A stretch of 64,000 bases of DNA, from contig DDRH01000022.1 in assembly GCA_002343075.1 (NCBI GenBank), positions 177,207 to 241,206 on the forward strand, written 5' to 3'. Below, in pieces: positions 24,177-42,316 of this stretch. The position numbers and the translations under genes are program-made. The notes beneath the pieces were generated by a model. That model was not told the DNA's origin. It searched no databases and saw only the letters and a program-made list of their open reading frames with translations. The stretch comes from Phycisphaerales bacterium UBA2421 (lineage in GTDB: Bacteria > Planctomycetota > Phycisphaerae > Tepidisphaerales > Tepidisphaeraceae). Numbering within the stretch: position 1 is the stretch's first letter; each line of letters begins with the position of its first letter.

Positions 24177-24179
24177 CTC

Positions 24180-25523
24180 ATGGCCACATCTTCACAAGCT
24201 GTACCCACCGACGAAGGCCGCCGGCCCCTGCGGGCCGTCATGCGCGTCTTTTTCACACTCGGCGATCAGGCCATTGTCAGTGCCACGAGTTTTCTATCGG
24301 GCATGATCGTCGCCAAGGCCACGAGCAAAGAGCAGTTCGGGCTTTATGGGCTGGGATTTACGATTGTGTTGATCGCGACCGAGCTGCAATCGGCGCTCAT
24401 CTCCACGCCCCAAACTGTCTTCGGTCCACGATACAGCGGCGATCGCAACAGCCAGTTTCAGGGCTCGATGCTCTTGAAGTTGCTGATGCTCGCCGCGTTC
24501 AATGTGACGATCCTCCTTATCGGCGCGGCCCTGGCCCAGACCGCCGGGAAGCACGACATCGCGCGAATGCTCGCGGCCATCGCGGTTAGCGTGACATCGA
24601 TGCACCTCGGGTTGTTCGTTCGCGTCACCTGTTTTGCACATCTCAACTCAATTGGCGCGTTTTTTGTCGATCTCGCCACCGCAACGCTTCAATTGGCAAC
24701 CTTACTCACCCTCTGGCACTACGGCGTACTCGAAGCCTGGACGGCGTGGCTTGCCATTCCGCTGGCGGCGTTTCCATCCGCGGTGGTGTTCCTGCTCTTC
24801 TGGCGGACGCACTTGCGCATCACCCGTGCCGGCGCGAAAGAAGACTTTCACATCACCTGGCTGCAGACGCGATTCGTCCTTGTCAGTAGCCTGATGTGGA
24901 TCCTCGGCATGCACATTTACGCCTGGTTGATCGAGTTTTTCGCCGATCGTGAAGGCGTGGCGGAGTGGACCGCATGCCTCGCCATCGCCGCGGTGGGAAA
25001 TCCGCTGATGTATGGCATGATGAACATCCTCGGCCCGCAGATCGCACATCGTCATCAAAGCCTTCCTTCAGTGGCATTTCGCAGATACATGTGGCTCGCG
25101 TCGGCGGCGTTCTTCGTGGTGATGGCGGGGTTTGCCGTCACCGTCACGGTGCTGGCCGACTGGCTCATGCTGCACATTTACACCCCGGAGTATGTGGGTC
25201 ACACCGCGATTGTCGCCATGATGGCATTTGGCTTCGCGGCCCGAGTGCCGGGCTTCGTCGCTTCCAGAGGGCTTTTTGCGCTCAACCGGGCGGACCTCGA
25301 ACTGTTGAACAACATCGCCCCGCTAGTCGTACTCGCGGGGCTGGGCATTTTCCTCACCTACCGATATCACGTTGCCGGCGCGGCGTTTTGCCTGCTGTTG
25401 GCACAAGTGATTGGTTCGATCACCCGACTGATCTGTTTTGAGTCGTGCATGAAAGCGGAGTCGCAACTGCGAGAGTCAGCCCCGACTGCCCCGCTGGCCG
25501 TTACCGCGGGAGCACAATCGTGA
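24180..25523 (+). CDS. polysaccharide flippase-like membrane protein (MOP/Wzx superfamily)
   Basis: A 447-residue protein with about 12 hydrophobic segments and the oligosaccharide-flippase layout. The N-terminal helix pair includes DQAIVSATSFLSGMIVAKA, followed by FGLYGLGFTI, a pattern typical of Wzx-like proteins. It would move lipid-linked repeat units across the inner membrane. It starts three bases after the previous stop and overlaps the following gene by four bases (GTGA), so the genes are translationally coupled. Confidence 0.85.
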   Translation: MATSSQAVPTDEGRRPLRAVMRVFFTLGDQAIVSATSFLSGMIVAKATSKEQFGLYGLGFTIVLIATELQSALISTPQTVFGPRYSGDRNSQFQGSMLLKLLMLAAFNVTILLIGAALAQTAGKHDIARMLAAIAVSVTSMHLGLFVRVTCFAHLNSIGAFFVDLATATLQLATLLTLWHYGVLEAWTAWLAIPLAAFPSAVVFLLFWRTHLRITRAGAKEDFHITWLQTRFVLVSSLMWILGMHIYAWLIEFFADREGVAEWTACLAIAAVGNPLMYGMMNILGPQIAHRHQSLPSVAFRRYMWLASAAFFVVMAGFAVTVTVLADWLMLHIYTPEYVGHTAIVAMMAFGFAARVPGFVASRGLFALNRADLELLNNIAPLVVLAGLGIFLTYRYHVAGAAFCLLLAQVIGSITRLICFESCMKAESQLRESAPTAPLAVTAGAQS

Positions 25524-26845
25524 GCGCGCTGACGGCTGGCAATCTGGTTATGCCTGCCTTCCGCCCGCGCGCGACGGCGACGCGCCGGCCGTGGTTTTAC
25601 GCGCTGTTTCTCTGCATTGTGTTCTTCATGGCCAACCACAACTGGTACGCCGCCAGCGCCTGGGAAGAAACCAATAGTACTGATGTGAGCAATCTGGTCT
25701 CCCGCATGGCCGAAGGGCAACTCTCTCGCCAGGTGGCATTCGTGGCCATGCTCGGAGTGGGGTTGGTGGGGATCGTCTTACCGTCACCCCGGCGGATGCG
25801 TGTGGACCTGCTGATTCTTTACCCGCTTCTGCTGCTTTGCGCCTGGTGCCTGCTCAGTATCCTCTGGAGCCAGGCCCCGATGATGACCGCCAAGCGGTTT
25901 ATCGTGTTTTTTGCGATGGCGGCAACTGTCCTGGCGATCGTGCGGCAGTTTTCCCTCAACTTCCTGGTGATTCTTTCGCTCTGCTACGGGGGGATGTCGC
26001 TCATGCTCGCCGTGCCCGCCGAGATCCTGAACGCAAACTTTTCGCAGGCCGGATATCGCTTCGCAGGCACAATGCATCCGAATCATACCGGTGTCTGCAT
26101 GGTGCTGCTCATGCTCGCCGCGCTGGCCCTGGCCGACTGGCAAGACCGCCGCCGGCGCTGGTTTTTCGCGCTGGCGGGGGTGGCGTTTCTCGTCCTACTG
26201 CTTACCCAGTCGCGCACCGCCCTGCTCGCGGGCATGTTTGCGGCGATGGTGATGACCGTTCTCCGATGGCCGCTGCGCAGGCTTCTGCTGGTGGGACTGC
26301 CGATCCTATGGATCATCCTCGTCGGCGGTACGCTTTACTCGCTGGAGTTGATCCCCCCGATATGGCAGGACGCGATCAACATGAACCGGCAGGACGCCGA
26401 TGCCACAACCCTCACCGGTCGCACCGATATCTGGAAATTCGCACTTGGCCATCTGACCAACGACGAAACGCGCCTGCTTATCGGCTTCGGCTACGACACA
26501 TTCTGGACGCCCGAGATGGCGCGCGCCGTGAGCAAGTTCGTTCAATTCAAGATCAGCGAAGGACATAGCGCCTATATTGATGCGACCCTGGAAACCGGTT
26601 TGATCGGCGCAAGCCTCTATGTTTTCTGCCTTTATGCCACGTTCTTCCGATGGTGCTGGTACGCCTGGAAGACTAAGGCCGCCGTTGCGGCATTTGCTGC
26701 GGCGATTCCGGCATTTGCGATGGTCCACGGGTTTGCCGAGTCGGCCACGGTGGATGCGCACACATGGACGCTGTTGCTTTTTGCGTGCATTGCCTTCGCC
26801 GGCCTGGCAAAACCCAATCTCAACAAAGGAACATTGTCGGCATGA
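25520..26845 (+). CDS. O-antigen ligase/Wzy-like polymerase
   Basis: A 441-residue protein with 10-12 membrane segments and the Wzy_C-type motifs RFAGTMHPNHTG, TQSRTALLAG and, in the large loop, TGRTDIWKFAL and EGHSAYIDATLETGLIG. Such proteins polymerise or ligate undecaprenyl-linked glycans at the periplasmic face. The start is GTG at 25520, overlapping the flippase stop as GTGA; a longer reading from 25445 overlaps the flippase and lacks a ribosome site. It overlaps the next gene as ATGA. Confidence 0.88.
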   Translation: MSALTAGNLVMPAFRPRATATRRPWFYALFLCIVFFMANHNWYAASAWEETNSTDVSNLVSRMAEGQLSRQVAFVAMLGVGLVGIVLPSPRRMRVDLLILYPLLLLCAWCLLSILWSQAPMMTAKRFIVFFAMAATVLAIVRQFSLNFLVILSLCYGGMSLMLAVPAEILNANFSQAGYRFAGTMHPNHTGVCMVLLMLAALALADWQDRRRRWFFALAGVAFLVLLLTQSRTALLAGMFAAMVMTVLRWPLRRLLLVGLPILWIILVGGTLYSLELIPPIWQDAINMNRQDADATTLTGRTDIWKFALGHLTNDETRLLIGFGYDTFWTPEMARAVSKFVQFKISEGHSAYIDATLETGLIGASLYVFCLYATFFRWCWYAWKTKAAVAAFAAAIPAFAMVHGFAESATVDAHTWTLLLFACIAFAGLAKPNLNKGTLSA

Positions 26846-28008
26846 AGCCCTTGAAAGTGCTAGTGATCAGCGGAGACTTCCCGCCCGCGCTCAGCGGTGT
26901 GGGTGACTATTCTAATCGCCTCTGCGCCCATCTCGCCGCCGACGGGGCCGCGGTGACGCTGCTGACAACGGCAAGCGAGTCTCTGCCGGAAGATGCGGGC
27001 CGGCCCTATCGCGTCCTACGGCAAATGAAATCATGGGACATGAGCCAGCGGGCCGAGATGGTCTCGATTGCGCGCGACTTTGACATTGTAAGCCTCCAAT
27101 ACCCCTCCGCACTCTACGGCCGCGGGCTCGGGATCAACATGCTTCCGCTTTCGCTCATGCGGTTGGGCGTGCCCTGCGTCGTAACCATCCACGACTTTCG
27201 TGTGATGCGAAAGAGGTGGCGCGCCCGCACGATTCCCATGCTGTCCTTTGCGCGAGCGCTCATTCACGTCGACCAACTCGACGGCGAGCACCTCCGGCGG
27301 TGGTCGTTCCGCCATGCACCGATGCGGCACATTCCCATCGCCTCTAACGCCCCGGTGGTCGACTGCGACGCTTCAAAGCGCGCCGCCTGGCGTGAACACC
27401 TGGGGATTCAGCCAGATGAACTGCTGGTCGCTTACTTTGGGATTCTCTATCCGCATAAAGGCGTGCCCGAGATGCTCGACGCCGTTGCCACCCTTCGCCG
27501 CGAGGGGCACCGCATTCGGGCGCTTTGCGTCGGCGACTTCGACCGCGAGGCCGATTACGTCGCCCCGATGACCGCCCGCCTGCAGGCCGATCATGTAACG
27601 TGGGTGCGCGGCGCGAGTCTGGAGCGCGTCAGCGAGTGTCTTCACGCCGCGGACATGGCGGCCCTGCCTTTTTACTCAGGCGCGGGCTTCAATCGATCCA
27701 GCCTGCTCTCGTGCCTTCAACACGGCCTGCCTACCGTCACCACCGATGGCCCGAACACGCCTGCCAACTTGAAGGATGTGTTTGAGCTACTGCTTGTACC
27801 GCCTCAGAATTCGCCCGCAGTGACAGAGGCGTTGCGGAAACTTGCTACCGATGCATCGTTGCGGAGCCGGCTGCGCGAGAGCGCAATCGCGGCAACGGCA
27901 AATCTCAGCTGGCCGGCCGTTTCTCGCCGCCACATGGAGTACTTTTCGCAACTGGCTGCCCGGCCCGCGCAGAGGGAGGTGGTTCATGAGAATCCTCAAC
28001 GTGCATAA
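26842..28008 (+). CDS. glycosyltransferase family 4 protein
   Basis: A 388-residue GT-B enzyme. The N-terminal acceptor domain begins LVISGDFPPALSGVGDYS, with the usual G-G/D loop. The C-terminal donor domain has LVAYFGILYPHKGVPEML near 190-210 and a Rossmann half ending in HAADMAALPFYSGAGFNRSS. The typical EGFG donor-site glutamate region is replaced by GAGFNRSS, which is seen in some GT4 subfamilies. It overlaps the ligase stop (ATGA) and the next gene by 23 bp. Confidence 0.88.
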   Translation: MKPLKVLVISGDFPPALSGVGDYSNRLCAHLAADGAAVTLLTTASESLPEDAGRPYRVLRQMKSWDMSQRAEMVSIARDFDIVSLQYPSALYGRGLGINMLPLSLMRLGVPCVVTIHDFRVMRKRWRARTIPMLSFARALIHVDQLDGEHLRRWSFRHAPMRHIPIASNAPVVDCDASKRAAWREHLGIQPDELLVAYFGILYPHKGVPEMLDAVATLRREGHRIRALCVGDFDREADYVAPMTARLQADHVTWVRGASLERVSECLHAADMAALPFYSGAGFNRSSLLSCLQHGLPTVTTDGPNTPANLKDVFELLLVPPQNSPAVTEALRKLATDASLRSRLRESAIAATANLSWPAVSRRHMEYFSQLAARPAQREVVHENPQRA

Positions 28009-29179
28009 CCGCCACATCGGCGCCGGCGGCACCGAAATGATGTTTGAAGCGATCACCCGGCTGCTGCGCTCCCGGGGGCAGGAAGTGATCTCCTTTGAAA
28101 AGGACAATCGCGACCTGCAAACCGTGTGGCAGAAGGTGAATGCGTTCGGAAGCGCAGTCTATTCACCGTCGGCGAGGCGCGAGTTTGCCCGGCTGCTCGA
28201 AGCCGAGAAGCCGGATTTGGTCCACGCGCATAATCTCTACCCGCAGCTATCAGTGAGCGTGCTCGACGCGTGCCGCGAGGTGGGCATGCCAGTGGTGCTG
28301 CATGTACACGACTACAAGATCACCTGCCCAACCGCGCAGCACATTCGCAACGGAAGGGTCTGCACCGAATGCACTGGCGGGAAAGAGCACTGGTGTGCAA
28401 TTCACAACTGCCGCGGTAGCCTGCCAATGAGTGTTGCGTACGCGCTGCGCAATGCGTTTGCCCGGGCGAGCGGCAAGATTCACGATGCCGTCTCTCTCTA
28501 CATCGGCTGCTCGTCGTTTGTGCGCGACTTGATCGTGAGCAACGGCTACCCCGCGGAACGGGCGATCGCCATTCCCAACTTTTTTGATCTCCCGCCGTTT
28601 TCGGGTCGCTCGTCGGACGGCGAGTATGTGGCGTATATTGGGCGAATCAGCCCGGAAAAGGGGCTGGATGTGCTGCTGGAAGCGGCGCAGCAGACCCGAC
28701 TCCCGGTTCGCATCGCTGGCGACCCGACATTCATGCCCGGCATCGAGCAGCGGGCACCGGCAAACGTGACATTTGTAGGGAAGCTGAATCGCGCCGCGAC
28801 CGACGCGTTTCTGGAACGGGCGAGAATGCTGGTCGTGCCAAGTGTCTGGTGGGAAGCATTTGGGCTGGTGGGTGTGGAAGCGATGAGCCGCGAGTTACCC
28901 GTCATCGCATCAAACATGGGCGGATTACCAGAAGTCGTGGATGATGGCATCACGGGACTTCTAACCCCTCCAAACGACGCAGCGGCGCTTGGGGCGGCGA
29001 TGAGGCGCCTGTGGGACGATCGTGCCCTCGCACGAAGGATGGGGTTGGCGGGACGCGAAAAGGCCGAGCGGCTCTACACCCCGAACGCATATTACCAGTC
29101 GCTTATGCGAGCATACGGGCGCGTGGCCGGCCATGCCACCCGCCCGATGCCGCGCGCAGAAGGCAGGGCCGTTGCATGA
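27986..29179 (+). CDS. glycosyltransferase family 4 protein with Cys-rich loop
   Basis: A 397-residue GT-B enzyme with the full donor motif: YIGRISPEKGLDVLLEA, VPSVWWEAFGLVGVEAMS (the ExFGxxxxE pair) and ASNMGGLPEVV. Between the domains near 113-142 lies a cysteine loop (C-x11-C-x2-C-x7-C-x4-C) seen in a known GT4 subgroup, possibly metal-binding. The start is ATG 27986 with AGGGAGG nearby, inside the end of the previous gene. It overlaps the following gene as ATGA. Confidence 0.9.
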   Translation: MRILNVHNRHIGAGGTEMMFEAITRLLRSRGQEVISFEKDNRDLQTVWQKVNAFGSAVYSPSARREFARLLEAEKPDLVHAHNLYPQLSVSVLDACREVGMPVVLHVHDYKITCPTAQHIRNGRVCTECTGGKEHWCAIHNCRGSLPMSVAYALRNAFARASGKIHDAVSLYIGCSSFVRDLIVSNGYPAERAIAIPNFFDLPPFSGRSSDGEYVAYIGRISPEKGLDVLLEAAQQTRLPVRIAGDPTFMPGIEQRAPANVTFVGKLNRAATDAFLERARMLVVPSVWWEAFGLVGVEAMSRELPVIASNMGGLPEVVDDGITGLLTPPNDAAALGAAMRRLWDDRALARRMGLAGREKAERLYTPNAYYQSLMRAYGRVAGHATRPMPRAEGRAVA

Positions 29180-30393
29180 ACTCTCTCCCGAAGCAGACAT
29201 CGACCATGAACCCGCGCAACCCCACCCCCGCAACGCCGCAACGTATGAGGATCGCTGTCATCGGCAGTCGTGGGGTGCCGAGCAACTATAGCGGTATTGA
29301 ACAGATACTTGAAAATCTCTTCTCGCACTTCGCGGCACAGGGTCACGACATCACCTGCTATTGTCGCCCGCAGATCGAGCGTCAACCCGGCGGAACGTTC
29401 CGGGGCATTCGACAGACATTCACTCCCTCGCCCGGCGGGAAAAATGGCGAAACTGTCTCGCATTCGCTTCTGAGCATGCTTCATGCAGTCACCCGCGGAG
29501 CACCGGGTGGGGGGAAGTTTGATCTGATCAGCATGCACGCGATCGCCCCAAACCTCGCCACGCCCATTGCGCACCTGGCGGGCATTCCCATCATCTCCCA
29601 TGTACACGGCCTGGATTGGCAACGGGAAAAGTGGAAAGGCCTCGGCAGCCAGATCATTCATGCCGGCGAAAGGGCCATGGTGGAACACAGCAGCGCGGTG
29701 ATCGTCGTCAATCGATCGCTGCAGGAGTACTATCGCTCGAACTACAACCTTGAGACTGCCTTGCTCCCCAACGGCATCCATATCACGCCCGACACACTGC
29801 CGATTCATGCACCAGTTTTGCAAGAGTTCGGCTTGCAGCCAAAGCGATTCATCGTCTGCATTGGCAGGCTGGTGCCCGAGAAACGGCTCCATGATACGAT
29901 CGCCGCGTTTACGAAGCTCAAGAGTGACTACAAACTGGCTATCGTCGGCGAAGGAAAGACAACCGCCGACTATGTCGAGTCGCTGCGCGCTGCGGGCGAA
30001 CCATCGCAGCGGGTGGTGTTTACGGGGCTTCAGCGTGGGGTGGCACTTGAAACGCTTTTTCGTGAAGCGGCGTTTTACGTCACCAGCAGCGAGCTGGAGG
30101 GCTTGCCATCGAGCCTGCTCGAGTGCATGGAACGAGGCACCTGCGCCATCGCCACCGATATCCCGCCGCACCATGAACTGCTTTCGCGCGTGCCGGGGTA
30201 CGATTTGTTTTTCAATGTCGGCAATGTGGCTTTGCTCTCACGACACATGCAGTACCTGATCGATCACCCGCAACACGCACAGGATATAGGCAGTGCGGCC
30301 CGGGGGTTTGTGCGCGGCGAATATGCATGGCCGGTGCTGGCGGCAAGAACCGAGCGGTTTTACCAGAAAGTGCTCGCACGGTTCGGCGCATAA
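29176..30393 (+). CDS. glycosyltransferase family 4 protein with DUF1972-type N-terminus
   Basis: A 405-residue GT-B enzyme. After a 23-residue Pro/Asn/Thr-rich head, MRIAVIGSRGVPSNYSGIEQ matches the start of DUF1972/rhamnosyltransferase-like GT4 proteins. The donor domain has FIVCIGRLVPEKRLHDTIAAF and TSSELEGLPSSLLECME (ExxGxxxxxxE pair). It is the last gene of the plus operon and ends 30 bp before the convergent minus operon. It probably adds a sugar to the repeat unit; the linkage is unknown. Confidence 0.88.
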   Translation: MNSLPKQTSTMNPRNPTPATPQRMRIAVIGSRGVPSNYSGIEQILENLFSHFAAQGHDITCYCRPQIERQPGGTFRGIRQTFTPSPGGKNGETVSHSLLSMLHAVTRGAPGGGKFDLISMHAIAPNLATPIAHLAGIPIISHVHGLDWQREKWKGLGSQIIHAGERAMVEHSSAVIVVNRSLQEYYRSNYNLETALLPNGIHITPDTLPIHAPVLQEFGLQPKRFIVCIGRLVPEKRLHDTIAAFTKLKSDYKLAIVGEGKTTADYVESLRAAGEPSQRVVFTGLQRGVALETLFREAAFYVTSSELEGLPSSLLECMERGTCAIATDIPPHHELLSRVPGYDLFFNVGNVALLSRHMQYLIDHPQHAQDIGSAARGFVRGEYAWPVLAARTERFYQKVLARFGA

Positions 30394-30423: not shown

Positions 30424-31584
30424 CTACCCCATCACCCGGTCGAGAAGCGACTGCAGGACGCGGCGCGAATCAAAGAATTCTTCGGCAATCTGCCGTGCCG
30501 CGGCGCAGTGCCGCTCGTGGTCGTGCCGGGTCGTTTCCAGGGCCGCGACTGCCTCATCAATTGTCTTGAAGCAGAACAACCCTTCGCCGGTTGGCAGCCA
30601 ACGCTCGTAGCCGCTCGATTGTGTAATGACCGGGCGGCCCGTCATCAGGTAAGCTGCACTGCGGTCGCTAAACCAACCGCTCGGCAGTTCGGTGTAAATC
30701 TGCTTTGCGACCGTCAGCTCCCCCGCCGACTCGGCGATGAACTGACGAAACGCCGCAGGGTCCTTCGACGCGCGCACGGCATCGTCGATCAACCAGCCCG
30801 CATCTTCAAACTGCATCTGCACCGGCGGCAGCATTTTGTCCATCGCGATGCGGAGTGGCCAAGGCGAGCGCGACGGCAAACTCATGAGCTTCATCCACTC
30901 GACCGCTTTGGTGCTGGCGTACTCCCTACCGTTGAATGTCACTGTGCGGCTGGCTGCGTGCTCCCACTTGCCAAGCGTGGTAAACGCGCGATCATCGACA
31001 AACAAGCCTGGTCGACTGGGAAGCAGCGGCCAGTACCGCTGCATGATCGGCTGACACGTCGGAATCCAGTCCATGTCGTGCGTGGGTAGTTGAGAAGCGG
31101 GTGTGCCGATGAGCCGGCCAAACGTCGCGGCGTGCGTGAATGACTTGTAATAGTTGCGGAACGACTCATCGTGCACCATTCGCAACTGCGTGAAGACCGG
31201 GTCGGTATCAATGATGAGCGTCCGCGAAGGACGCTCATACCAGTCGAGCGGCGTCACGCCGCTGACGCAAATGAGCAGATCGGCCGACTTTAGTCGGCGG
31301 TTAATTTCAGCGACGGTTACCCCTTCGACTACAGGACCGAACCGGTAATGAAATGCGATGTTGCCGTAGCCATAGTTTTCGAGGGTTCGTTTGAGATAGT
31401 CGACGCCGTACGCTGCCACGCCGTTGCTTTCGGTCGTCGGATCATACGGCGGCATGTCGGCGCCGTCTTCGAGATAGGTGACCTCGTGCCCCAACTCAGC
31501 CAGCCCGAGCAGATAATTCAAGTGATGCCAGGTCATCCCCCCCAGCGGGTAGCCGACGATGTATCCGGCGACGACAATTTTCAT
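30424..31584 (-). CDS. atypical glycosyltransferase-like protein (paralogue B)
   Basis: A 386-residue protein with a GT-B-like pattern: an N-terminal YIVGYPLGGMTWHHLNYLLG loop, then AELGHEVTYLED. The C-terminal half has FIAESAGELTVAKQIY, GWFSDRSAAYLMTGRPV and a GEGLFCFKTIDEAVAAL segment. It lacks the classical GT4 E(x7)E motif. It is clearly paralogous to the gene upstream (31581-32858), sharing these blocks in the same order, and overlaps it by four bases (ATGA). Donor and acceptor are unknown. It is the last gene of the minus operon. Confidence 0.75.
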   Translation of the reverse strand: MKIVVAGYIVGYPLGGMTWHHLNYLLGLAELGHEVTYLEDGADMPPYDPTTESNGVAAYGVDYLKRTLENYGYGNIAFHYRFGPVVEGVTVAEINRRLKSADLLICVSGVTPLDWYERPSRTLIIDTDPVFTQLRMVHDESFRNYYKSFTHAATFGRLIGTPASQLPTHDMDWIPTCQPIMQRYWPLLPSRPGLFVDDRAFTTLGKWEHAASRTVTFNGREYASTKAVEWMKLMSLPSRSPWPLRIAMDKMLPPVQMQFEDAGWLIDDAVRASKDPAAFRQFIAESAGELTVAKQIYTELPSGWFSDRSAAYLMTGRPVITQSSGYERWLPTGEGLFCFKTIDEAVAALETTRHDHERHCAAARQIAEEFFDSRRVLQSLLDRVMG

Positions 31585-32858
31585 GACTTTCCCGACAGGC
31601 CAGACGGGAGGCTCGAAGATGCGCCGGATGATGCGCCTTTGCCCGGCGGGAGGTGTTGGGGCTGGCGCGCCGCGCTGAAAATTGTTTCGAGCATCGGCGG
31701 TAACACACGATCGGGAGCGACATATTCTCGGGCAACGTCGTACGCGGCCAGCCGATGCCGCGTCGGGTCGGAAGAGACGGCCTGCAAGCCCGCGACGGCT
31801 TCATCCATCGTCGAAAACGCGAGCAACCCTTCACCGCAGGGCACAAACCGGCTCCAACCCGTATCCTGCACCACCGCCGGGCGACCCGCGGCGAGGTAGC
31901 AGGCGGTTCGACAGCTAAACCAACCCGTCCGCGGGGCGACATAGCAGTTCTTCGCGACCGACCACTCCCCCGCCGACTCGGCAATGAACTCAAGATAGTC
32001 CTGCGGCGAGAGCGAAGCGGCCCTGGAGTCCACCTGCTGCCACCCGGCGGCGTTAATCCTGGCCTCAGGCTTGTGATACCCCGCCGCTGCCACGGTAAGG
32101 GGCACGTTCACCCGTTTCGGCAGGTCCATAAACTTCTCAAACTCTGGTGCCTTTGCCCCATATTCCACGCCATCCCAGACCAGCGGGCCTTTGAAATATG
32201 TCCAACTCATGACCGTGGTGTAGGGCGCGCCGGCAGGCAATTGACGATCACGAAAAGATTGCCACGGCTCAAGCGTGACAACCGCGCGCGTAGGCCGCCA
32301 GTCAAGGTCCAACCGCGGGAGCAGGCAATCGATTCCGTAGATGTTTTCGGCGTAGGTCAGATGTCGGTCGTGCGCGCGGACCGTCTTCACCCAGCCATCG
32401 ACGTTGGTGCCCCAGTTAGGGTCGGTCGCCATGACAATCTGGTTGTAGCCCGGGTCGGTGTCCATAAACACCTTCACGCAGTTCGGGCTTAGGTTGTCAG
32501 GAATCATCGACGCCCCACTGACATTCAGGAACACGTCTGCAGTACGGGCAATCTCATCAAACTCCGCCTTTGACATACCAAAGTGCTTCTCATGCAGATG
32601 CAGGTAGTGCCATCGGTCCTTAAGCTGCGGCGCGTGCTTCTCAAAAAACTGCCGAAAATACTCCGCGGCGTAGGTGGGATCGTCGGTTGGATAGCCCAGC
32701 ACCGGGTTGTTCACCCAACACCATGTATCCTCATGGTAATAAACATCATGCCCAAGCTCAGACAGCGCAAGGAGATAGTGAAAGTAGTCCCACGCCACCC
32801 CACCGAGGGGGTGTGCTCCGACCATGCCGCAGGTGATGATTCGTAGCTTGGATTTCAT
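31581..32858 (-). CDS. atypical glycosyltransferase-like protein (paralogue A)
   Basis: A 425-residue protein paralogous to its downstream neighbour. Shared blocks include the start GAHPLGGVAWDYFHYLLALSE, the middle KVFMDTDPGYNQI (DTDP in both proteins), FIAESAGEWSVAKNCY, GWFSCRTACYLAAGRP and GEGLLAFSTMDEAVAGL. The C-terminal 25 residues are a Ser/Gly/Pro tail. It lies 38 bp after the ABC exporter in the same direction. Annotated relatives are usually called glycosyltransferase family 1, but the assignment is by weak similarity. Confidence 0.75.
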   Translation of the reverse strand: MKSKLRIITCGMVGAHPLGGVAWDYFHYLLALSELGHDVYYHEDTWCWVNNPVLGYPTDDPTYAAEYFRQFFEKHAPQLKDRWHYLHLHEKHFGMSKAEFDEIARTADVFLNVSGASMIPDNLSPNCVKVFMDTDPGYNQIVMATDPNWGTNVDGWVKTVRAHDRHLTYAENIYGIDCLLPRLDLDWRPTRAVVTLEPWQSFRDRQLPAGAPYTTVMSWTYFKGPLVWDGVEYGAKAPEFEKFMDLPKRVNVPLTVAAAGYHKPEARINAAGWQQVDSRAASLSPQDYLEFIAESAGEWSVAKNCYVAPRTGWFSCRTACYLAAGRPAVVQDTGWSRFVPCGEGLLAFSTMDEAVAGLQAVSSDPTRHRLAAYDVAREYVAPDRVLPPMLETIFSAARQPQHLPPGKGASSGASSSLPSGLSGKS

Positions 32859-32896
32859 AATATCATTTCAGCCTCGATACCCAACTGCACCGATGG

Positions 32897-34711
32897 CTAG
32901 TCGCGAGTCTCTGCCTGCACCTGCGGCTCGGGTTCGTCGCCCAGCTTGAGTTGATGCCGGGCCATTCGATAATAGACACCTCGACGGGCGATCAGCTCGT
33001 CATGCTTGCCCCTCTCCACGATTTCCCCACCGTCCATGACAAAGATTTGATCGCAGTCTGCAACGGTGCTCAGCCGGTGGCTGACAAGCACAATGGTTCG
33101 CTGACTTTTGAGCCGCTTGAGTGTTTCGGTGATGAGCTGTTCGTGTTGGGGATCGAGCGCGCTCGTAGGCTCATCCAGCACGATGATCGGCGCTTCGGTC
33201 AGCAGAGCGCGCGCGATGCTGATCCGCTGCTTCTGCCCGCCGGAGAGGTTGCTGCCTGCTTCTTGAATCATCGTCTCAAACTTCTGCGGCAGCTTGTTAA
33301 TGAACGCCGCCGCGCCGGCCAGTTCGGCTGCTTGAACAATCTCCGCCTCCGTTGCACCCGGGCGCCCATAAGCGATGTTTTCTGACACCGTTGTGGGCAA
33401 AATCACACTGTCCTGCAACACCAGTGCCACATGCCTGCGGAGATCGGCCAATCTGATCTTGCGTACATCAGTTCCATCAAGCGTCAATGCCCCCGAAGTA
33501 GGATCGTAGAACCGCGGGAGAAGATTGAGCAGGGTTGTCTTGCCCACGCCACTTTCGCCGACAAAAGCAACCATCTCGCCAACAGCAATGTTGGCCGTGA
33601 CATCCCGCAAAATCGGTTTTCCGGCATCATATTCGAAGCCCACCCGGTCAAACGCCAGCGTGCGCGCTTGCCGTGGAAGATGGATAGCGTCGGGCGCGTC
33701 CCGGATGATCGGATCGCGGTCGAGGACTTCAAAGACACGTTCCACCTTCGCCACTTCACCCTGCAAACCCGAACCGATGCCGCTCAATGCCTTCAGCGGG
33801 TCATAAAGCTTCTCGAGGTAAATCAGGAAAGTCGCCAAAAACCCCGCCGTGATCTCGCCGCGAAGCGCCAGCACCCCGCCGTAGCCGAGAATCACACTCG
33901 CACCGACGGCAAAAATCACGCCCAGTACAAGCCAATACATGATTTCATGCCAGTGAAGATGCATCTTTACCTGGATGCTGTTGCCCTGCGTGCTGGCAAA
34001 TCGCGTGAATTCATCGTGTTCGCGTCCAAATGCCTGCACCAGGCCAATACTCGACACGCTTCGCTGAATCGCGGTGGTGACTTGCGCGTCGCGCTCGTAG
34101 CTTTGAATGTACTTCTTCTTAAGCACTTCGCCGTACCACCGAATCGCGAAAAATACGAACGGCGTCACAGTCAGACTCACCAGCGTGAGCTTCACATTCA
34201 TCGCCAGCATGATGCATGTCATTGCTACCAGCGTGATGACATTGATCATCACACCGATCAACGTGTTCAAAACACCCTGAAAGCCCATCGTGTCGTAGCT
34301 AAGCCGGTATATCGCGTCCCCTTGCGGCTGGCTCTTGTGATATCCGATGCTCAAGGCCTGCAACTTGCGAAACAGGTCGCAGCGGACCCGCATCATTCCA
34401 TTATAGCCGATGCGAATATTGAGAAGCGTCTGGGCCGGGCGAAGAATCTCGTGCAAGAGTCGGATCGTCAGCATGGCCCCTGCCAACACCAGCACTTGCT
34501 GCGTCGCTGTCATGTCCGAAGCAAAGTTGTTCCACGCGCGGTAGATCCATTTCTCCTCGCCCTTGGAGGACAACACGCGGTCAATCAGCACCATCAGCGG
34601 CAGCGGCCACGCAAGACCGAGCACGATTGAGGCAACTGTGACCAACTGTGACGTGACGATCCTGCCAAGGTCGTCGCGAAAATAGGAAATGGCTCGCCGG
34701 TAAACACGCAT
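32897..34711 (-). CDS. MsbA/NdvA-type ABC exporter (fused permease and ATPase)
   Basis: A 604-residue half-transporter. Six membrane segments occupy about 15-320, including WPLPLMVLIDRVL, then the nucleotide-binding domain. It has Walker A GESGVGKTTL, Q-loop VLQDSVILP, signature LSGGQKQR, Walker B IIVLDEPTSALD and H-loop LVSHRLS, all intact. Exporters of this type move lipid-linked glycans, lipids or cyclic glucans. It starts two bases after the hydrolase-glycosyltransferase stop, which suggests that it exports that enzyme's product. Confidence 0.93.
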   Translation of the reverse strand: MRVYRRAISYFRDDLGRIVTSQLVTVASIVLGLAWPLPLMVLIDRVLSSKGEEKWIYRAWNNFASDMTATQQVLVLAGAMLTIRLLHEILRPAQTLLNIRIGYNGMMRVRCDLFRKLQALSIGYHKSQPQGDAIYRLSYDTMGFQGVLNTLIGVMINVITLVAMTCIMLAMNVKLTLVSLTVTPFVFFAIRWYGEVLKKKYIQSYERDAQVTTAIQRSVSSIGLVQAFGREHDEFTRFASTQGNSIQVKMHLHWHEIMYWLVLGVIFAVGASVILGYGGVLALRGEITAGFLATFLIYLEKLYDPLKALSGIGSGLQGEVAKVERVFEVLDRDPIIRDAPDAIHLPRQARTLAFDRVGFEYDAGKPILRDVTANIAVGEMVAFVGESGVGKTTLLNLLPRFYDPTSGALTLDGTDVRKIRLADLRRHVALVLQDSVILPTTVSENIAYGRPGATEAEIVQAAELAGAAAFINKLPQKFETMIQEAGSNLSGGQKQRISIARALLTEAPIIVLDEPTSALDPQHEQLITETLKRLKSQRTIVLVSHRLSTVADCDQIFVMDGGEIVERGKHDELIARRGVYYRMARHQLKLGDEPEPQVQAETRD

Positions 34712-34713
34712 GA

Positions 34714-37374
34714 CTATGCCAGCGATGCCGACTCTTCCAATTCATCTTCGTCGACCACCGGGCGGGGCTGTTTCGAGGCTTCCAGCGCGTTCATGGGAAT
34801 ATACTGCGCCTTTTCGGCAGCGGCGTCTACCAGGCCCAACACAGGCGCGACGACGCGCGTCTTGTTCACCACATACATCGTCCACCAAGCGATCGGAATC
34901 AGCAGCGCCGGGCGGGCAAACGGCCATAGGTGCGGGTCGGGAAACCCAGTCAGCAGTAGCATGGCAGCTAATACGCAACTGGCGATGGTCAGTACGAGGC
35001 AGAATTTGCTCATCATCAGCTCGACGCGCACGCGGGTCATGTTGCCTGCCCCGCCGTAGTGCTCGGTGGCGGTGGTCAGCCTGACTTTGCAGTAACGTGA
35101 GCCATAGATCTCCATGTCGTACGGTGCCCACCCGCTATCCACGCGCGTGCGCCAGCCGGCTTCCTGCGTTTCTTTCACGATTTCCTGCAGCAAGGGCACG
35201 CGGTCGTGCCAGGTGTTCCAGTAGCGGAGGGTGCGCTTGTCCGCCGTGTCGAAGGGCAGCGCGCGGCCCGTGTAGCCACGCGCTTCGTTGTTCATCACCT
35301 TGTTCTTCAGGCGCACGCTGTACCGCGCCCAGCCGCGAGTGATTGGTTGACGCCAGTGAAGATAGGCGATTAAAGGCCGGGTGAACCAGCTCATATGCTT
35401 CGGCGGCGGCGCCTGCACGGCGGCGACGATCGCAAGACCTACCGGCACTAGTTCCATCAACACAAACACCCACAACAGCGGCGGCACCGCAAGGCTGAGT
35501 AGTCCGATGAACGCTGCAAGCATATGCCACTCGATGCTCATCAGCATCGCTGCAAGCATCGATGCCGGCTTGCGGTAGATCGTCTGAAACAACCCTGTGC
35601 CAAACGTACCGTGGTACACCACATCCCCGCCGACGCGCACACCTACTTGGTCTGCGCCGTAAATCTTGCCCCGCCAGAAGCTTGCGCCCAGCGAGTTAAA
35701 ATGATCGGGGTGCTTATACTTCAGCATCGCCTCGGCAGTGCCGTAGCCGCGCTGCTGCTTGAGATATGCCTTCACGGTGTTTCGTCGATAGTGCCAGACC
35801 TGCGCACTGGGTGCAAAGCCGATGGTTCCCCCGGCGTGTTGCAGACGCCAGATGAAATCGACATCATCCCCCGCCGACCGAAATTGCGCATCAAAGCCGT
35901 TAACCGCCAGCGCGCTCTTGCGGTAAAACGCCATGTTACACCCCGGAACATGCTCCGCGGTGCGGTCATCGAGCATCACATGCGTTGGCCCGCCGGGACT
36001 GACACCCACACAGTCGGCCACCCAACTGCCCTCATCCGGAATCAGGTTTGGCCCGCCGATGCCGATGTGGTTGCTGCGGGTCAGCGCGAGCGCGATGTAG
36101 TAGAGCCAGTCTTCATCCGCCTCGCAGTCGCTATCGGTATAGACGATAATCTCTCCGCTCGCTGCATGCATGCCCACGTTGCGCGCGTAGGAGAGGCCCA
36201 TGTTTTTCTGCTTGATGTTCAGCACCCATGGAAAGTGCTTTAGGATGTCCTGCGTGCTGTCGGTGCTTCCGTCGTCAACAAACACCACTTCAAACTCGCC
36301 CGGATAGCGAAGCTTGGCCATCGACCGAAGACACGCCTCGGTCGTGCTCGCGCCGTTGTACGAACAGACAATCACGCTGCATTTTGGGAGCTTTTCATCG
36401 CAGAGTTGCGGTGCCCGGGCGAAAAGCGCGGCGACTGCCGCGAATGCCTGCTTGGGCGATCGATCGCGCCTGACCACGCCAAACGCCCAGTCTTCAATCT
36501 GATATCCCCCGGTAAACCAGTCGTCTGTGAAGCTGAAAATGAAAGTGCCCACAAGCCCTTCATCGAACACCGCGCGCACATGCGCCGCAAGAATCGAAGC
36601 CTGATCTTCTTCATTGCGCTCGTGCAGCGTATCGATGCCATACTCGCCGAGCATCAGCGGCTTGTCTCCGGCAATCATCTGAAGGCGCGCGAGGTAGTTT
36701 CGGAAAACGCCGGGATCATGGAGGTAGACATTGAAGCACACGAAGTCGATGCTGCGCGGCTGCAGGTATTCTGTTGTCGGAAAGTTGGCAAAAGTGACCA
36801 GGCAATCGGGCGCTTCGGCGTGGCAGATGGCAACCAGATCGTCGACAAACGCTTCGACCCTTTCCTTGCCGACGAAGCGCACAATGTCCGGCGGAATCTC
36901 GTTCACCACACTGATGGCAAAGATCGCAGGATGATTGCCGCACTGGCTTGCTGCGGTGCGAATCGCCTCGTGAGCCTGCCTGGTAATTTCGGCATCGCCT
37001 ACGAAGGTCATGTTTTTTGGCCAGGCGACATCGAGAAGCACCTTCAGGCCGAGTTCCTGAGCCATGTCAAGAAACCACTTCGGCGGCGTGTGGTAGATAC
37101 GGACGCAATTACCATTAAGCTTCCGCACCTGCAGGAAATCGGCCCGGGTTTGCTCACGGGAGGGAAATGGATCGCCGTCGGAATTGGGCGCAAACGGCCC
37201 GTAGGTGACGCCCTTGACGAAGAATTTTTCGTCGCCCAGGCGGAAGAACTTTCCATCGCGGCGCACGCGATTGGTCGGCGCATCGACGCGCCGCTGCCGG
37301 CCGCCGGCGATTGAACTCTGTGCCTGTTCCCCCGGCGAACCGCCGGTGGACTGATCGATTACAGCTAGCGACAT
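34714..37374 (-). CDS. glycoside hydrolase (GH2/GH5-like TIM barrel) fused to membrane GT2 glycosyltransferase
   Basis: This 886-residue fusion has a TIM-barrel hydrolase in residues 40-320 with both catalytic glutamates of clan GH-A: acid/base E159 in VVNEIP and nucleophile E244 in LGEYGID. A GT2 domain starts at about 331 (CSVIVCSYNG), with VDDGSTDST at 366-374, the metal-binding TDSD at 413-416, GDDVDFIWRL and QQRGYGTAEA. Three to five membrane segments follow (around 620-670 and 815-860). There is no signal peptide and no membrane segment between the two domains, so both should lie in the cytosol. It is the first gene of a four-gene operon with an ABC exporter. Confidence 0.88.
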   Translation of the reverse strand: MSLAVIDQSTGGSPGEQAQSSIAGGRQRRVDAPTNRVRRDGKFFRLGDEKFFVKGVTYGPFAPNSDGDPFPSREQTRADFLQVRKLNGNCVRIYHTPPKWFLDMAQELGLKVLLDVAWPKNMTFVGDAEITRQAHEAIRTAASQCGNHPAIFAISVVNEIPPDIVRFVGKERVEAFVDDLVAICHAEAPDCLVTFANFPTTEYLQPRSIDFVCFNVYLHDPGVFRNYLARLQMIAGDKPLMLGEYGIDTLHERNEEDQASILAAHVRAVFDEGLVGTFIFSFTDDWFTGGYQIEDWAFGVVRRDRSPKQAFAAVAALFARAPQLCDEKLPKCSVIVCSYNGASTTEACLRSMAKLRYPGEFEVVFVDDGSTDSTQDILKHFPWVLNIKQKNMGLSYARNVGMHAASGEIIVYTDSDCEADEDWLYYIALALTRSNHIGIGGPNLIPDEGSWVADCVGVSPGGPTHVMLDDRTAEHVPGCNMAFYRKSALAVNGFDAQFRSAGDDVDFIWRLQHAGGTIGFAPSAQVWHYRRNTVKAYLKQQRGYGTAEAMLKYKHPDHFNSLGASFWRGKIYGADQVGVRVGGDVVYHGTFGTGLFQTIYRKPASMLAAMLMSIEWHMLAAFIGLLSLAVPPLLWVFVLMELVPVGLAIVAAVQAPPPKHMSWFTRPLIAYLHWRQPITRGWARYSVRLKNKVMNNEARGYTGRALPFDTADKRTLRYWNTWHDRVPLLQEIVKETQEAGWRTRVDSGWAPYDMEIYGSRYCKVRLTTATEHYGGAGNMTRVRVELMMSKFCLVLTIASCVLAAMLLLTGFPDPHLWPFARPALLIPIAWWTMYVVNKTRVVAPVLGLVDAAAEKAQYIPMNALEASKQPRPVVDEDELEESASLA

Positions 37375-37677
37375 CTGGCGAATCCGACTTTCTTCGTAAC
37401 GCGGCGGCCCGATAAACAGGCGCTGCCGGGCAATACTTCCACCCGCATCGCATGCTTATTGCGATGGAGTTGGTGGCATCTACAAGCGAATCATACAATC
37501 CGCCTGCCCCGTCGTGCGCTCCTAAAACGAGCAACCCGACGGATTTATGGCGATAGACAACCATTTTCAGGTGGGGTTAGGAAAAAGTTATCGGAATTGC
37601 TCAACAGTTTCGTCCGATAACTCGTGTCTGGCGCTGAAGTTGACGCGCCCCGGGCACTCTCCCATTATGGTGCCCCT
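37375..37677. other. divergent intergenic region (303 bp)
   Basis: This region separates the hydrolase-glycosyltransferase operon (minus) from the metallophosphatase gene (plus), so it should hold both promoters. I see only a small dyad, CATCGCA/TGCGATG with a seven-base loop, at 37446-37466. No convincing sigma-70 pair or small gene was recognised. Confidence 0.4.
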
Positions 37678-38547
37678 ATGCCGAACGCCGACGCCGATAC
37701 GGTGGTTGAGAATTTCTCGATAGCGACCGACGAGAACAAGCTGTCTTCGCTGCGGAACCAGCAAGTCGTCACCCTGCCGCCGGACTGCGAAGTCTGGATG
37801 ACCGGCGACATGCACGATCATCGCACCAACTTCAGCAAACTGGCCGCCGCCGCAAGGCTTGGCGACAATCCGCACCGCCATGTCGTGTTGCATGAGCTGA
37901 TTCACGGCGATCACTTTGATGCATCGGGGGCCGAGGACAGTTGGATCACTCTCCATGCCGCAGCCGAGCTGAAAGCGCAACACCCAAGCCAGGTTCATTT
38001 TCTCCTTGCCAACCATGACCTTGCGCAGATTCATGGCGAAGGCATCATGAAGAGCGGGCTGAGCGTTTGCGAGGCGTTCTATAAGGGGCTGAAACGAGAT
38101 TTTCCCGAGGCATACCACAAGGTGAACATCTCAGTCACAGAATTTCTACTTTCATTGCCACTGGCGATTCGCTGCCCGAACGGGCTTTTTTTCTGTCACT
38201 CGCTCCCGACCGACGAACAAATCGCAAGCTTCGATTTTACGGTTTTTGACCGCGAGCTCACCGGCGAAGACTACAAACGGCGGACGGGGCCGGTGTATCA
38301 GCTCATCTGGGGCCGCAATGTTACCCCGGCGGGTGTGGACACATTTGCCGATGCTGTTAATGCGCGGCTCATCATCACCGGTCATCAGCCGCAGGAAATG
38401 GGCTACGCTGTCAACGGCGAGCGGCATATCATTATGGCATCTGACCACAATCAGGGCGTGTTCGCCCCGCTGACGACCAGCGACGAATATGATGTGGATG
38501 CTGTTCTGAGCCGGATGAAGAAGTTTGTGGCCATGCCCGCCGCGTGA
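37678..38547 (+). CDS. calcineurin-like metallophosphatase (PPP type)
   Basis: A 289-residue protein with ordered metal motifs: GDMHDHRTNF (about 42-51), LLANHDLAQIHG, CHSLP and TGHQPQEMG. These match the GDxHG, GNHD/NHD, H and GHxx elements of serine/threonine-type or diadenosine-type phosphoesterases, with D replacing G in the first motif. The substrate is unknown. Start ATG 37678 lies just before the conserved part. It is the first gene of a run with hisI and a TrkH-like protein. Confidence 0.85.
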   Translation: MPNADADTVVENFSIATDENKLSSLRNQQVVTLPPDCEVWMTGDMHDHRTNFSKLAAAARLGDNPHRHVVLHELIHGDHFDASGAEDSWITLHAAAELKAQHPSQVHFLLANHDLAQIHGEGIMKSGLSVCEAFYKGLKRDFPEAYHKVNISVTEFLLSLPLAIRCPNGLFFCHSLPTDEQIASFDFTVFDRELTGEDYKRRTGPVYQLIWGRNVTPAGVDTFADAVNARLIITGHQPQEMGYAVNGERHIIMASDHNQGVFAPLTTSDEYDVDAVLSRMKKFVAMPAA

Positions 38548-40719: not shown

Positions 40720-41844
40720 TTAACGCGATGGCACGAGATCACTGACTCGGGTACTGATCAGGCCCTGCAATGTACCTGCCAACTCTTCATAGAGCGATCG
40801 ATCTCCGCCGATCGGGTCTTCGATGTCGCTGTTCGGGTCGAGCGTGCTCACTTTGCTCGCCGCCGCCGGGTTGATTGCCAGCACCGCCTGTCGGTGGGCG
40901 TTGCTCATTGTGAGAATGAGGTCGGCTTGGTTGATCAACTCGGGCATAAGCGGTTTGGATCGATGCTTCGACAAATCACCTCCGAGCTTGCGCACTGCAT
41001 CGACGGCCTCGGGCGTGGCACGACCGCCGGGAAACGCTGATGCCCCCGCCGACAGCACCGAATACCCGCTCGATTCAATCTCATCCTGAGGCACCTTCAA
41101 CCGATCGGCAATCACCTTGCGCGCGATCGCTTCTGCCATCGGGCTTCGGCATGTGTTTCCGCTGCAGACAAACAGAACGGTCGTTCGCATAAGTCGCTCG
41201 ATGATCCGTTGATCGTAGATTCCCTCGCGGACAATCTTGTATCCATCGGGGCCAACCTGAATCAGCGTCGATGGCTTTGCAAATGGTGTCGGACCGGCAT
41301 CCAGAATCAGATCGACTTTTCCCTCCAGCGCTGGTGCGATCTTTGACACCTCTCGCGCGCCCCCGCCATCCGTCCCCGCCACCGCAAGCACCACTGGCGC
41401 GGCGACCGCCCTGATCACGTCAATCGCAACAGTGTGATGCGGGCATCGAAGCGTGATGTTGCCCGAAGCGTCGAACACATCGGCCTCACGCAGTTCCAAC
41501 TTGCCTGCTGCTCTGGCTCGCTGTGATGGATCGACTGAAAACGTCAACCCGACCGGACCCGGCCAGAGCTTCTTCATCAATCGCTTCGCAAATGGCGTCG
41601 GCTCTCCAACCAGATCAATGGCGGCGGATGAGTCGGCGAGATGAATGGTCAGTGGCTGCTCACCGGCATTTCGCAGCGCACGCAGTTTGCGAATGGCGTC
41701 CGGGTGCGATGCCATCGCCGCCACGCCGTATACTGTTTCCGTCGGCAGCACAACCAACCCACCGTCGCGCAACACGCCGGCAGAACGGTGAATCTGGGTC
41801 GGATAGTCCCCGGCACTGAAGATTTCCACGACTGAAGTCGTCAT
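40720..41844 (-). CDS. TsaC/Sua5 threonylcarbamoyl-AMP synthase fused to YwlE-like LMW phosphatase
   Basis: One 374-residue frame joins two enzymes. Residues 1-215 are a YrdC/Sua5 domain (VLPTETVYGVAA, LWPGPVGLTF), which makes threonylcarbamoyl-AMP for t6A. From about 219 a low-molecular-weight phosphatase begins with CSGNTCRSPMAEA (CX5R loop) and ends with DPIGG. The Thr in the GNTCRS loop is the residue that gives B. subtilis YwlE its preference for phosphoarginine; tyrosine phosphatases usually have Ile. In Bacillus the homologues are the adjacent genes ywlC and ywlE. An internal ATG at 41190 could also give free phosphatase. Confidence 0.9.
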   Translation of the reverse strand: MTTSVVEIFSAGDYPTQIHRSAGVLRDGGLVVLPTETVYGVAAMASHPDAIRKLRALRNAGEQPLTIHLADSSAAIDLVGEPTPFAKRLMKKLWPGPVGLTFSVDPSQRARAAGKLELREADVFDASGNITLRCPHHTVAIDVIRAVAAPVVLAVAGTDGGGAREVSKIAPALEGKVDLILDAGPTPFAKPSTLIQVGPDGYKIVREGIYDQRIIERLMRTTVLFVCSGNTCRSPMAEAIARKVIADRLKVPQDEIESSGYSVLSAGASAFPGGRATPEAVDAVRKLGGDLSKHRSKPLMPELINQADLILTMSNAHRQAVLAINPAAASKVSTLDPNSDIEDPIGGDRSLYEELAGTLQGLISTRVSDLVPSR

Positions 41845-42316
41845 TGAAATTGAGTATCTGCGAGTCGGGGGCATGGTTCAAGTGACGGACGTGCCCAGAC
41901 CGGCACGCCTCTTCGCCGGACCAAAGAACGGGTGCAACGACGGGCAAGACGACAATTGTTCCGCGCGGAACAATTGCGCAAAATCGACATAACTCATTTT
42001 GCATAAGAGACTTACGCGGCGCATAAAAAAAAGACCGACCCTAACGTTGTGTTAAGATCGCAGTCTTGCCATTCATCCCACCCCGCCGCAACCGCCGCGA
42101 CCGCCCGGGGTTGCCCTGGTTGCAATCTGAATCACACAGGATCAGAATTGTCACCCGCGATCCCGCACTGGTTGAGTTGTCGAGTCGGGTCAATCTCGCG
42201 ACCCGACGGGCACGGTAAATCGCGAAAATTGTTGATCTTCACGAGCATGAGATATCGCCTCTACTCTTGAGGAATGCGCGTCACTCCGTCGTTAACGCTT
42301 TGCAGGGTTTGAACTT
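41845..42316. other. divergent intergenic region with two adjacent dyads (472 bp)
   Basis: Between the tsaC-ywlE fusion (minus) and the kinase gene (plus). It holds a perfect 24-bp palindrome at 41953-41976, a second inverted repeat at 41978-42002 and an A8 run near 42026. I see no tRNA, riboswitch or small gene in it. Confidence 0.5.
41953..42002. promoter_or_regulatory. 24-bp perfect palindrome plus adjacent GCAAAAT/ATTTTGC repeat
   Basis: Bases 41953-41964 and 41965-41976 are exact reverse complements (CAATTGTTCCGC and its mate). One base later GCAAAAT (41978-41984) pairs with ATTTTGC (41996-42002) across 11 bases. The palindrome lacks a loop, which fits a dimeric protein site better than an RNA hairpin. 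It is 109 bp upstream of the tsaC-ywlE start. Confidence 0.55.

What the first reader, a model, noticed from the sequence alone, without database searches (positions are those of the whole stretch)
30424..37374. Four-gene operon: cytosolic hydrolase-GT2 fusion, MsbA/NdvA-type exporter and two unusual GT-like paralogues
Seen: four genes in tight array (gaps of 2 and 38 bp, then an ATGA overlap). The first joins a clan GH-A TIM barrel with both glutamates (E159, E244) to a membrane GT2 with complete VDDG and DSD motifs, and no signal peptide separates them. Known: in rhizobia, glucan synthesis by a GT2-GH17 fusion (NdvB type) goes with an MsbA-like exporter (NdvA). Inference: a comparable synthesise-edit-export module for a planctomycete glycan, with two atypical GTs added. 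The GT2 carries QQRGYG rather than the processive QxxRW motif, so the product may be short or a decorated lipid. I know of no described system with this exact composition.
Basis: partly seen in the sequence, partly recalled or inferred. Interest (0 to 1): 0.72.

Follow-up and report, generated by a model that had tools for sequence, protein, structure and literature searches.

The report
Cytosolic hydrolase-glycosyltransferase fusion export operon
A four-gene operon in a planctomycete-related bacterium looks built to make, trim, decorate and export a short sugar molecule; related gene sets recur in other bacteria, and what they make is still unknown.

Summary
On the minus strand lie FUS (34714-37374: clan GH-A barrel fused to GT2 and a small membrane part), ABC (32897-34711), GTA (31581-32858) and GTB (30424-31584), with gaps of 2 and 38 bp and a 4-bp overlap. 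It is no one-off: FUS is followed by ABC in 14 of 16 loci read in the same family, and all four come in order in 5 of them and in two loci outside the class (L070, L130). GTA/GTB-type genes occur with FUS in 35 of 38 genomes of the class and 10 of 10 of a second phylum, in 9 of those 10 unlinked. In family f5, 14 of 15 loci read FUS-ABC-acetyltransferase(s)-GTA-type-YdjC. NdvB/NdvA membership fails: no helices between GH and GT2, no QxxRW, ABC below NdvA/ChvA/MsbA cut-offs. GTA is a GT-B, GT4-like fold, unusual in sequence only; GTB was not modelled. Best reading: cytosolic synthesis, trimming or transglycosylation, decoration and ABC export of a short oligosaccharide or glycolipid; product, donors and GH role are inferred. 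Against: most verrucomicrobial loci seen carry FUS alone.

The parts
34714..37374 (-). FUS: 886-aa fusion, clan GH-A barrel + GT2 + membrane/C-terminal part
   Evidence: ORF; Pfam; alignments; AF2 model pLDDT 86.1, pTM 0.77
36439..37269 (-). FUS GH domain (about residues 36-312, my estimate); E159 and E244 invariant in 49 sequences
35695..36387 (-). FUS GT2 domain (about residues 330-560): VDDG, DSD, GDDVD, QQRGYG
   Evidence: TIGR03965 MftF 151.8 bits, cut-off 280; 32% identity to an annotated MftF over 243 columns
34714..35559 (-). FUS membrane helices and C-terminal soluble part (about residues 606-886)
   Evidence: hydropathy; predicted helices within 606-691 and 790-855
32897..34711 (-). 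ABC: 604-aa exporter half-transporter (membrane and ATPase domains in one chain)
   Evidence: PF00664 + PF00005; NCBIfam and PDB
31581..32858 (-). GTA: 425-aa GT-B, GT4-like glycosyltransferase
30424..31584 (-). GTB: 386-aa paralogue of GTA (33% identity), not modelled on its own
   Evidence: alignment; tree

Best explanation
The operon makes and exports a short glycan (free oligosaccharide or lipid-linked). Shown: gene order, domain make-up, invariant catalytic residues in GH and GT2, no membrane-strength segment between them, conserved association of the components. Inferred: the membrane-bound GT2 elongates an acceptor on the cytosolic face by an inverting, MftF-like reaction; the fused clan GH-A domain, in the same compartment, trims or transglycosylates the chain (fixing length or linkage, or removing faulty acceptors); GTA and GTB cap or branch it; the ABC half-transporter, presumably as a homodimer, carries the product over the inner membrane. 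In the related family f5 the product is probably also acetylated and deacetylated, since acetyltransferase and YdjC genes sit in the same gene row.
For: FUS-ABC adjacent in 14 of 16 same-family loci read, a GTA-type gene after them in 8 of the 16, all four in order in 5 (small called ORFs lie between in some). All four also in L070 (Verrucomicrobia) and L130 (unnamed bacterium); FUS-ABC-GTA-type in L081 (Methylacidiphilum sp., contig end) and L074. The window's GTA groups with the first GT genes of L070, L081, L130 (99/92) and its GTB with the second genes of L070 and L130 (91/87, below the tool's star). Co-occurrence of FUS and GTA/B-type genes (both, FUS only, GTAB only, neither): class 35, 5, 3, 255 of 298; second phylum 10, 9, 0, 221 of 240; window's phylum 2 (one is the window's genome), 1, 0, 243 of 246 (thresholds 1e-40/1e-100 for FUS, 1e-25 for GTAB; Fisher for the first two, relatedness not corrected). 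In the second phylum the genes are adjacent in G298 only; in the other 9 genomes GTAB is on another contig (G309, G325, G330, G371, G482) or at least 180 kb away (G359, G389, G395, G468), so linkage does not explain it. Pieces recur: ABC-acetyltransferase-GTAB (L192, L198), FUS-ABC (L195, L197). f5: FUS-ABC-HEX(-HEX)-GTAB-YdjC in 14 of 15 loci read (families named by Pfam in L055 and L056); the fifteenth, L054, has another FUS type and ends after ABC.
Against: Of 71 loci L066-L136, 4 have ABC directly downstream and 7 a GTAB gene within four genes; of 20 genomes I picked from these loci 8 have a GTAB gene at 1e-15, 5 of them at the FUS locus itself. Nine of the 19 FUS genomes of the second phylum lack GTAB; they are also the nine with the lowest FUS scores. 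Six of 16 same-family loci have ABC but no GTAB beside it and two (L047, L049) have neither. Within f1 alone the FUS/GTAB association is weak (16, 4, 2, 4; Fisher 0.051). The window's genome has no YdjC, so the acetylation evidence comes from relatives. No model coordinates were available, so whether the GH cleft faces the GT2 site was not tested. GH substrate is unresolved: GH157 (beta-1,3-glucanase) and GH2 uronidases score close together.
Confidence: 0.6

Rival explanations
1. NdvB/NdvA-like: the GT2 makes a beta-glucan chain that the GH part cleaves or cyclises, and the ABC protein exports it.
For: Same two enzyme classes in one chain plus an exporter; GH domain's best solved neighbour is GH157, solved with laminari-oligosaccharides; 43 of 49 members match the Pfam glucanosyltransferase model GH72 at E<=0.01; some P. 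syringae Orphans are also predicted with a cytoplasmic GH17.
Against: No signal peptide and no helices between GH and GT2 against signal peptide plus three helices in the described model protein; QxxRW absent; ABC far below ChvA and glucan-exporter cut-offs.
Confidence: 0.12
2. Lipid-linked glycan flipping: FUS, GTA and GTB assemble a glycolipid headgroup that the MsbA-type ABC protein flips; the product is a surface glycolipid.
For: Best NCBIfam matches of ABC are MsbA-type models (396 and 391 bits); a PglK model also matches (160 bits); PimA and DGD2 are among the many GT4 neighbours of GTA.
Against: MsbA models are missed by a wide margin (cut-offs 780 and 602), PglK too (1000); no lipid-carrier transferase lies in the operon.
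Confidence: 0.25
3. The GH domain is an acceptor-binding or regulatory module rather than an editor, and ABC serves another substrate; gene order reflects shared regulation only.
For: FUS alone in many loci and genomes.
Against: Both GH glutamates invariant in 49 of 49 sequences down to 38% identity; recurrent pairings of ABC, GTAB and FUS in split loci.
Confidence: 0.1

Closest known systems
Pseudomonad GT2-GH17 'NdvB/Orphan' cyclic-beta-glucan synthases (PMC10237404; abstract, outline and passages seen)
   Same: One chain with a TIM-barrel glycosidase ahead of a GT2 and membrane helices
   Different: The model protein there has a signal peptide, periplasmic GH17, three helices between domains and five after, and a BcsA-like GT2 (some P. 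syringae members excepted); here no helices between domains, few helices in all, QxxRW missing
MftF mycofactocin glycosyltransferase (PMC7491314; abstract and passages seen)
   Same: GT2 core: 32% identity over 243 columns; makes a short (up to nine) beta-1,4-glucose chain
   Different: The compared MftF (515 aa) aligns over the GT2 part only; FUS is below the MftF cut-off (151.8 vs 280 bits); no mft gene was recognised beside the operon
NdvA/ChvA and MsbA ABC exporters (NCBIfam TIGR01192, NF010178, TIGR02203, TIGR02204)
   Same: Single-chain membrane-ATPase half-transporter architecture
   Different: 263/585, 339/733, 391/602, 396/780 bits/cut-off
GT4 enzymes such as BshA, PimA, tll1591 alpha-1,2-glucosyltransferase
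   Different: 8-16% identity; the family has its own GWFS.R..YL..G.P..Q motif and the window's two genes reach no Pfam cut-off
Rhizobial Nod-factor genes nodC/nodIJ/nodL/nodB (recalled, not retrieved)
   Same: Composition of the f5 gene row: GT2, exporter, hexapeptide acetyltransferase, deacetylase
   Different: Single-chain exporter here; deacetylase is YdjC or PIG-L type; NodC model 43.5 bits against cut-off 550; I recall no Nod counterpart of the GH domain or the GT-B enzymes

Membership tests
GT2-GH17 NdvB/Orphan synthases | Signal peptide and membrane helices placing GH in the periplasm | tested here: not met
   Hydropathy scan of 49 members: no membrane-strength segment between GH and GT2 (one 1.3 peak, L102); N-terminal stretch in 2 of 49. 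The feature is not universal in that family: P. syringae members lack the signal peptide
GT2-GH17 NdvB/Orphan synthases | Processive Q(Q/R)xRW motif | tested here: not met
   Q540, Q541, Y544, G545 invariant in 49 of 49
GT2-GH17 NdvB/Orphan synthases | GH17 domain | tested here: inconclusive
   No GH17 model among the 11 Pfam families matched by 49 members at E<=0.01; GH157 and GH2 lead the fold lists, absence from a list proves nothing
NdvA/ChvA glucan exporter | Curated model score | tested here: not met
   TIGR01192 263.4 of 585.4; NF010178 338.9 of 733
MsbA | Curated model score | tested here: not met
   TIGR02203 391 of 602
MftF | Curated model score | tested here: not met
   151.8 of 280 bits
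MftF | Other mft genes nearby | tested here: inconclusive
   The neighbours I gave to Pfam are other families; no mft model was searched in the window
GT2 superfamily | PF00535 above cut-off with DD and DxD motifs | tested here: met
   88 bits, cut-off 23.3; motifs invariant
Clan GH-A | TIM barrel with two catalytic glutamates | tested here: met
GH157 | Family-level similarity and beta-1,3-glucanase activity | tested here: inconclusive
   phmmer 2e-14 to LaGH157 but GH2 enzymes nearly as close by fold; no CAZy model on hand; activity not testable
GT4 / GT-B | GT-B fold | tested here: met
   for GTA; GTB by homology only
Nod-factor system | NodC orthologue, deacetylase and acetyltransferase in the unit | tested here: not met
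   NodC model 43.5 of 550 bits; none of the window's four genes matches a deacetylase or acetyltransferase family; f5 relatives have such genes

The most novel reading that the evidence does not exclude
A secreted, decorated signalling or structural oligosaccharide pathway of planctomycete and verrucomicrobial bacteria, Nod-factor-like in composition (GT2, acetyltransferase, deacetylase, exporter) but of separate origin, in which chain length is set in the cytosol by a hydrolase or transglycosidase fused to the synthase.
Probability: 0.15. Interest if true: 0.8.

Novelty: new variant of a known kind. Interest (0 to 1): 0.52.

Why it matters
[quoted passage not shown] The old GTA/GTB pair and the f5 gene row give clear candidates for tailoring steps.

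Tried and rejected
NdvB/NdvA membership: rejected on topology, motif and curated scores, with the P. syringae exception told above. Plasmid-borne copies: tblastn of FUS against 72,556 plasmid records matched 523 records, in none did one place cover 80% of the query, and the 40 listed rows lie in the GT2 part; GTA gave no match. Neighbours of lone FUS: an outer-membrane efflux protein gene upstream in 10 of 71 loci and a thymidylate synthase downstream in 9 of 71 (clusters, one representative of each named); the second looks like housekeeping synteny and neither is used as evidence. A metallophosphoesterase divergent from FUS recurs in f1 loci but is not shown to be part of the system. A paper for PDB 9FZ9/9G5G/9G4N was not found; their titles name GH157. 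Literature for this composition: seen as listings only, showed no description. A first gene caller that took the longest ORF on either strand hid FUS in 9 loci and was replaced by HMM-first calling; the tag GT2b overrode FUS in some rows, corrected. The FUS tree (quick method, SH-aLRT only, odd-numbered lone loci of L066-L136 left out) does not split loci with and without a nearby GTAB gene into two clades (at least 10 changes).

Rows dropped before counts: of 20 FUS-bearing f1 genomes, 16 were read for gene order; G115 (FUS in fragments), G145 (main FUS runs off contig C574), G151 (contig ends within ABC) and G121 (divergent FUS type only) were left out. Of 20 FUS-bearing f5 genomes, 15 were read; G079, G114, G144, G150 and G172 were not. 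In L179 ABC and GTAB are each split into two frames, in L042 ABC is; they were counted as present. L130's phylum is not told by its title; L066-L136 also hold one Phycisphaerales (L067), one Armatimonadetes (L101) and three further records titled only 'bacterium'.
Full report
Check of the finding. The four ORFs, strand, gaps (2, 38 bp) and the 4-bp overlap are as stated. FUS has PF00535 at 88 bits and weak GH72 and GH2_C matches above cut-off (30.3 of 25.9; 23.6 of 21); ABC has both ABC domains; GTA touches PF13524 just under its cut-off; GTB has no Pfam match at 0.001. The genome is a 4.47-Mb assembly in 67 contigs; it holds one full FUS (six further matches cover only the GT2 part) and two GTA/GTB-type genes. 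Named near relatives of the proteins come from Phycisphaerae, Phycisphaerales and Tepidisphaeraceae records, so that placement is inferred.

Constraint. In 49 FUS sequences (38-79% identical to the window) both GH glutamates, DD, DxD, GDDVD and QQ..YG are invariant. In 36 GTA/GTB sequences D135, P136, T215, K236, E298, G312, F314, S315, R317, P327 and Q331 are among the invariant residues, so both paralogues look active.

Topology. No membrane-strength segment separates GH from GT2 in 49 members (one marginal peak in L102), and the window protein has none at its start; its strong segments lie near residues 642 and 800. The described GT2-GH17 fusion of Pseudomonas (SBW25 model protein) has a signal peptide, periplasmic GH17, three helices, GT2, five helices; the same paper says R. 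meliloti NdvB shares only 12.2-13.6% identity with it, and that some P. syringae members lack the signal peptide and are predicted with a cytoplasmic GH17 (PMC10237404, passages).

Distribution. FUS at E<=1e-40: 40 of 298 genomes of the class, 20 in f1 (the window's family) and 20 in f5. GTA/GTB-type genes at E<=1e-25: 38 of 298. From the listed handles: both 35, FUS only 5, GTAB only 3 (G092, G127, G168), neither 255; within f1 alone 16, 4, 2 and 4, where the association is weak (Fisher 0.051). Phylum of G298, reached from a verrucomicrobial locus: FUS at 1e-100 in 19 of 240, GTAB in 10 of 240, all 10 among the 19; they are the 10 with the highest FUS scores. Phylum of the window: FUS 3 of 246, GTAB 2 of 246, both within the 3. 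Fisher values of 1e-36 (class) and 6e-13 (second phylum) take no account of relatedness. A scan of genome contigs, capped, confirmed 569 loci and kept the best 80: planctomycete or verrucomicrobial names, four titled only 'bacterium', one Armatimonadetes.

Gene order. f1: FUS-ABC adjacent in 14 of 16 loci; a GTAB gene after it in 8; two GTAB genes in 5 (window, L037, L042, L043, L048), small called ORFs lying between in some; L039 and L060 end soon after the first. f5: 14 of 15 loci FUS-ABC-HEX(-HEX)-GTAB-YdjC; L054 has another FUS type and ends after ABC; HEX and YdjC named by Pfam in L055 and L056. A second FUS type in f1 (L046, L187) sits with APH-GT4-PIG-L-ABC-GTAB. Elsewhere: L070 and L130 have all four, L081 and L074 the first three, G704 a looser cluster (L188), and other genomes hold ABC-HEX-GTAB or FUS-ABC pieces apart. 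Against this, in 71 loci L066-L136 only 4 have ABC directly downstream and 7 a GTAB gene within four genes, and 12 of 20 genomes picked from them show no GTAB.

History. In the GTA/GTB tree the window's GTA lies with the first GT genes of L070, L081 and L130 (99/92) and its GTB with the second genes of L070 and L130 (91/87, not starred); the duplication seems older than the split of these carriers, or the pair moved together. The FUS tree (SH-aLRT only) shows loci with and without GTAB intermixed.

Mechanism. Inferred: an inverting MftF-like GT2 (151.8 bits; 32% identity to an annotated MftF) extends an acceptor at the membrane; the cytosolic GH trims or transglycosylates; GTA and GTB decorate; ABC exports. 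MftF makes beta-1,4-glucose chains of up to nine units (PMC7491314, passages), which fits a short product. Acetyltransferase and deacetylase genes in relatives suggest a modified, perhaps amino-sugar-bearing, glycan, but the window's genome has no YdjC and its three PIG-L matches lie on other contigs.

Verdict. A real, conserved, uncharacterised module; not a member of the NdvB/NdvA system as described; a new variant of GT2/ABC oligosaccharide synthesis and export. Interest 0.52.

Noticed in passing
22062-30393 (+): Wzz-like, Wzy_C and three GT4 genes, plus a membrane protein without Pfam match that looks flippase-like to me, form an exopolysaccharide-type locus converging on the operon; its last gene ends 30 bp from the end of GTB.
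   Followed up: partly
37624-38547 (+): Metallophosphoesterase gene divergent from FUS; homologues lie upstream of FUS in L038, L044, L045, L048, L049, L062 and L067 (Pfam).
   Followed up: partly
40720-41874 (-): Fusion of a Sua5/YrdC domain with a low-molecular-weight phosphotyrosine phosphatase, next to an RpiB-type gene.
   Followed up: no
L046, L187, L180: Second, divergent FUS/GTAB gene set in the same family: PIG-L deacetylase, GT4 and APH-like kinase genes in L046 and L187, three GTAB with APH and YdjC but no FUS in L180.
   Followed up: partly
L088, L091 and 8 more of the 71 loci L066-L136: Gene of an outer-membrane efflux protein family (named in L088) one or two genes upstream of FUS on the same strand.
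   Followed up: no
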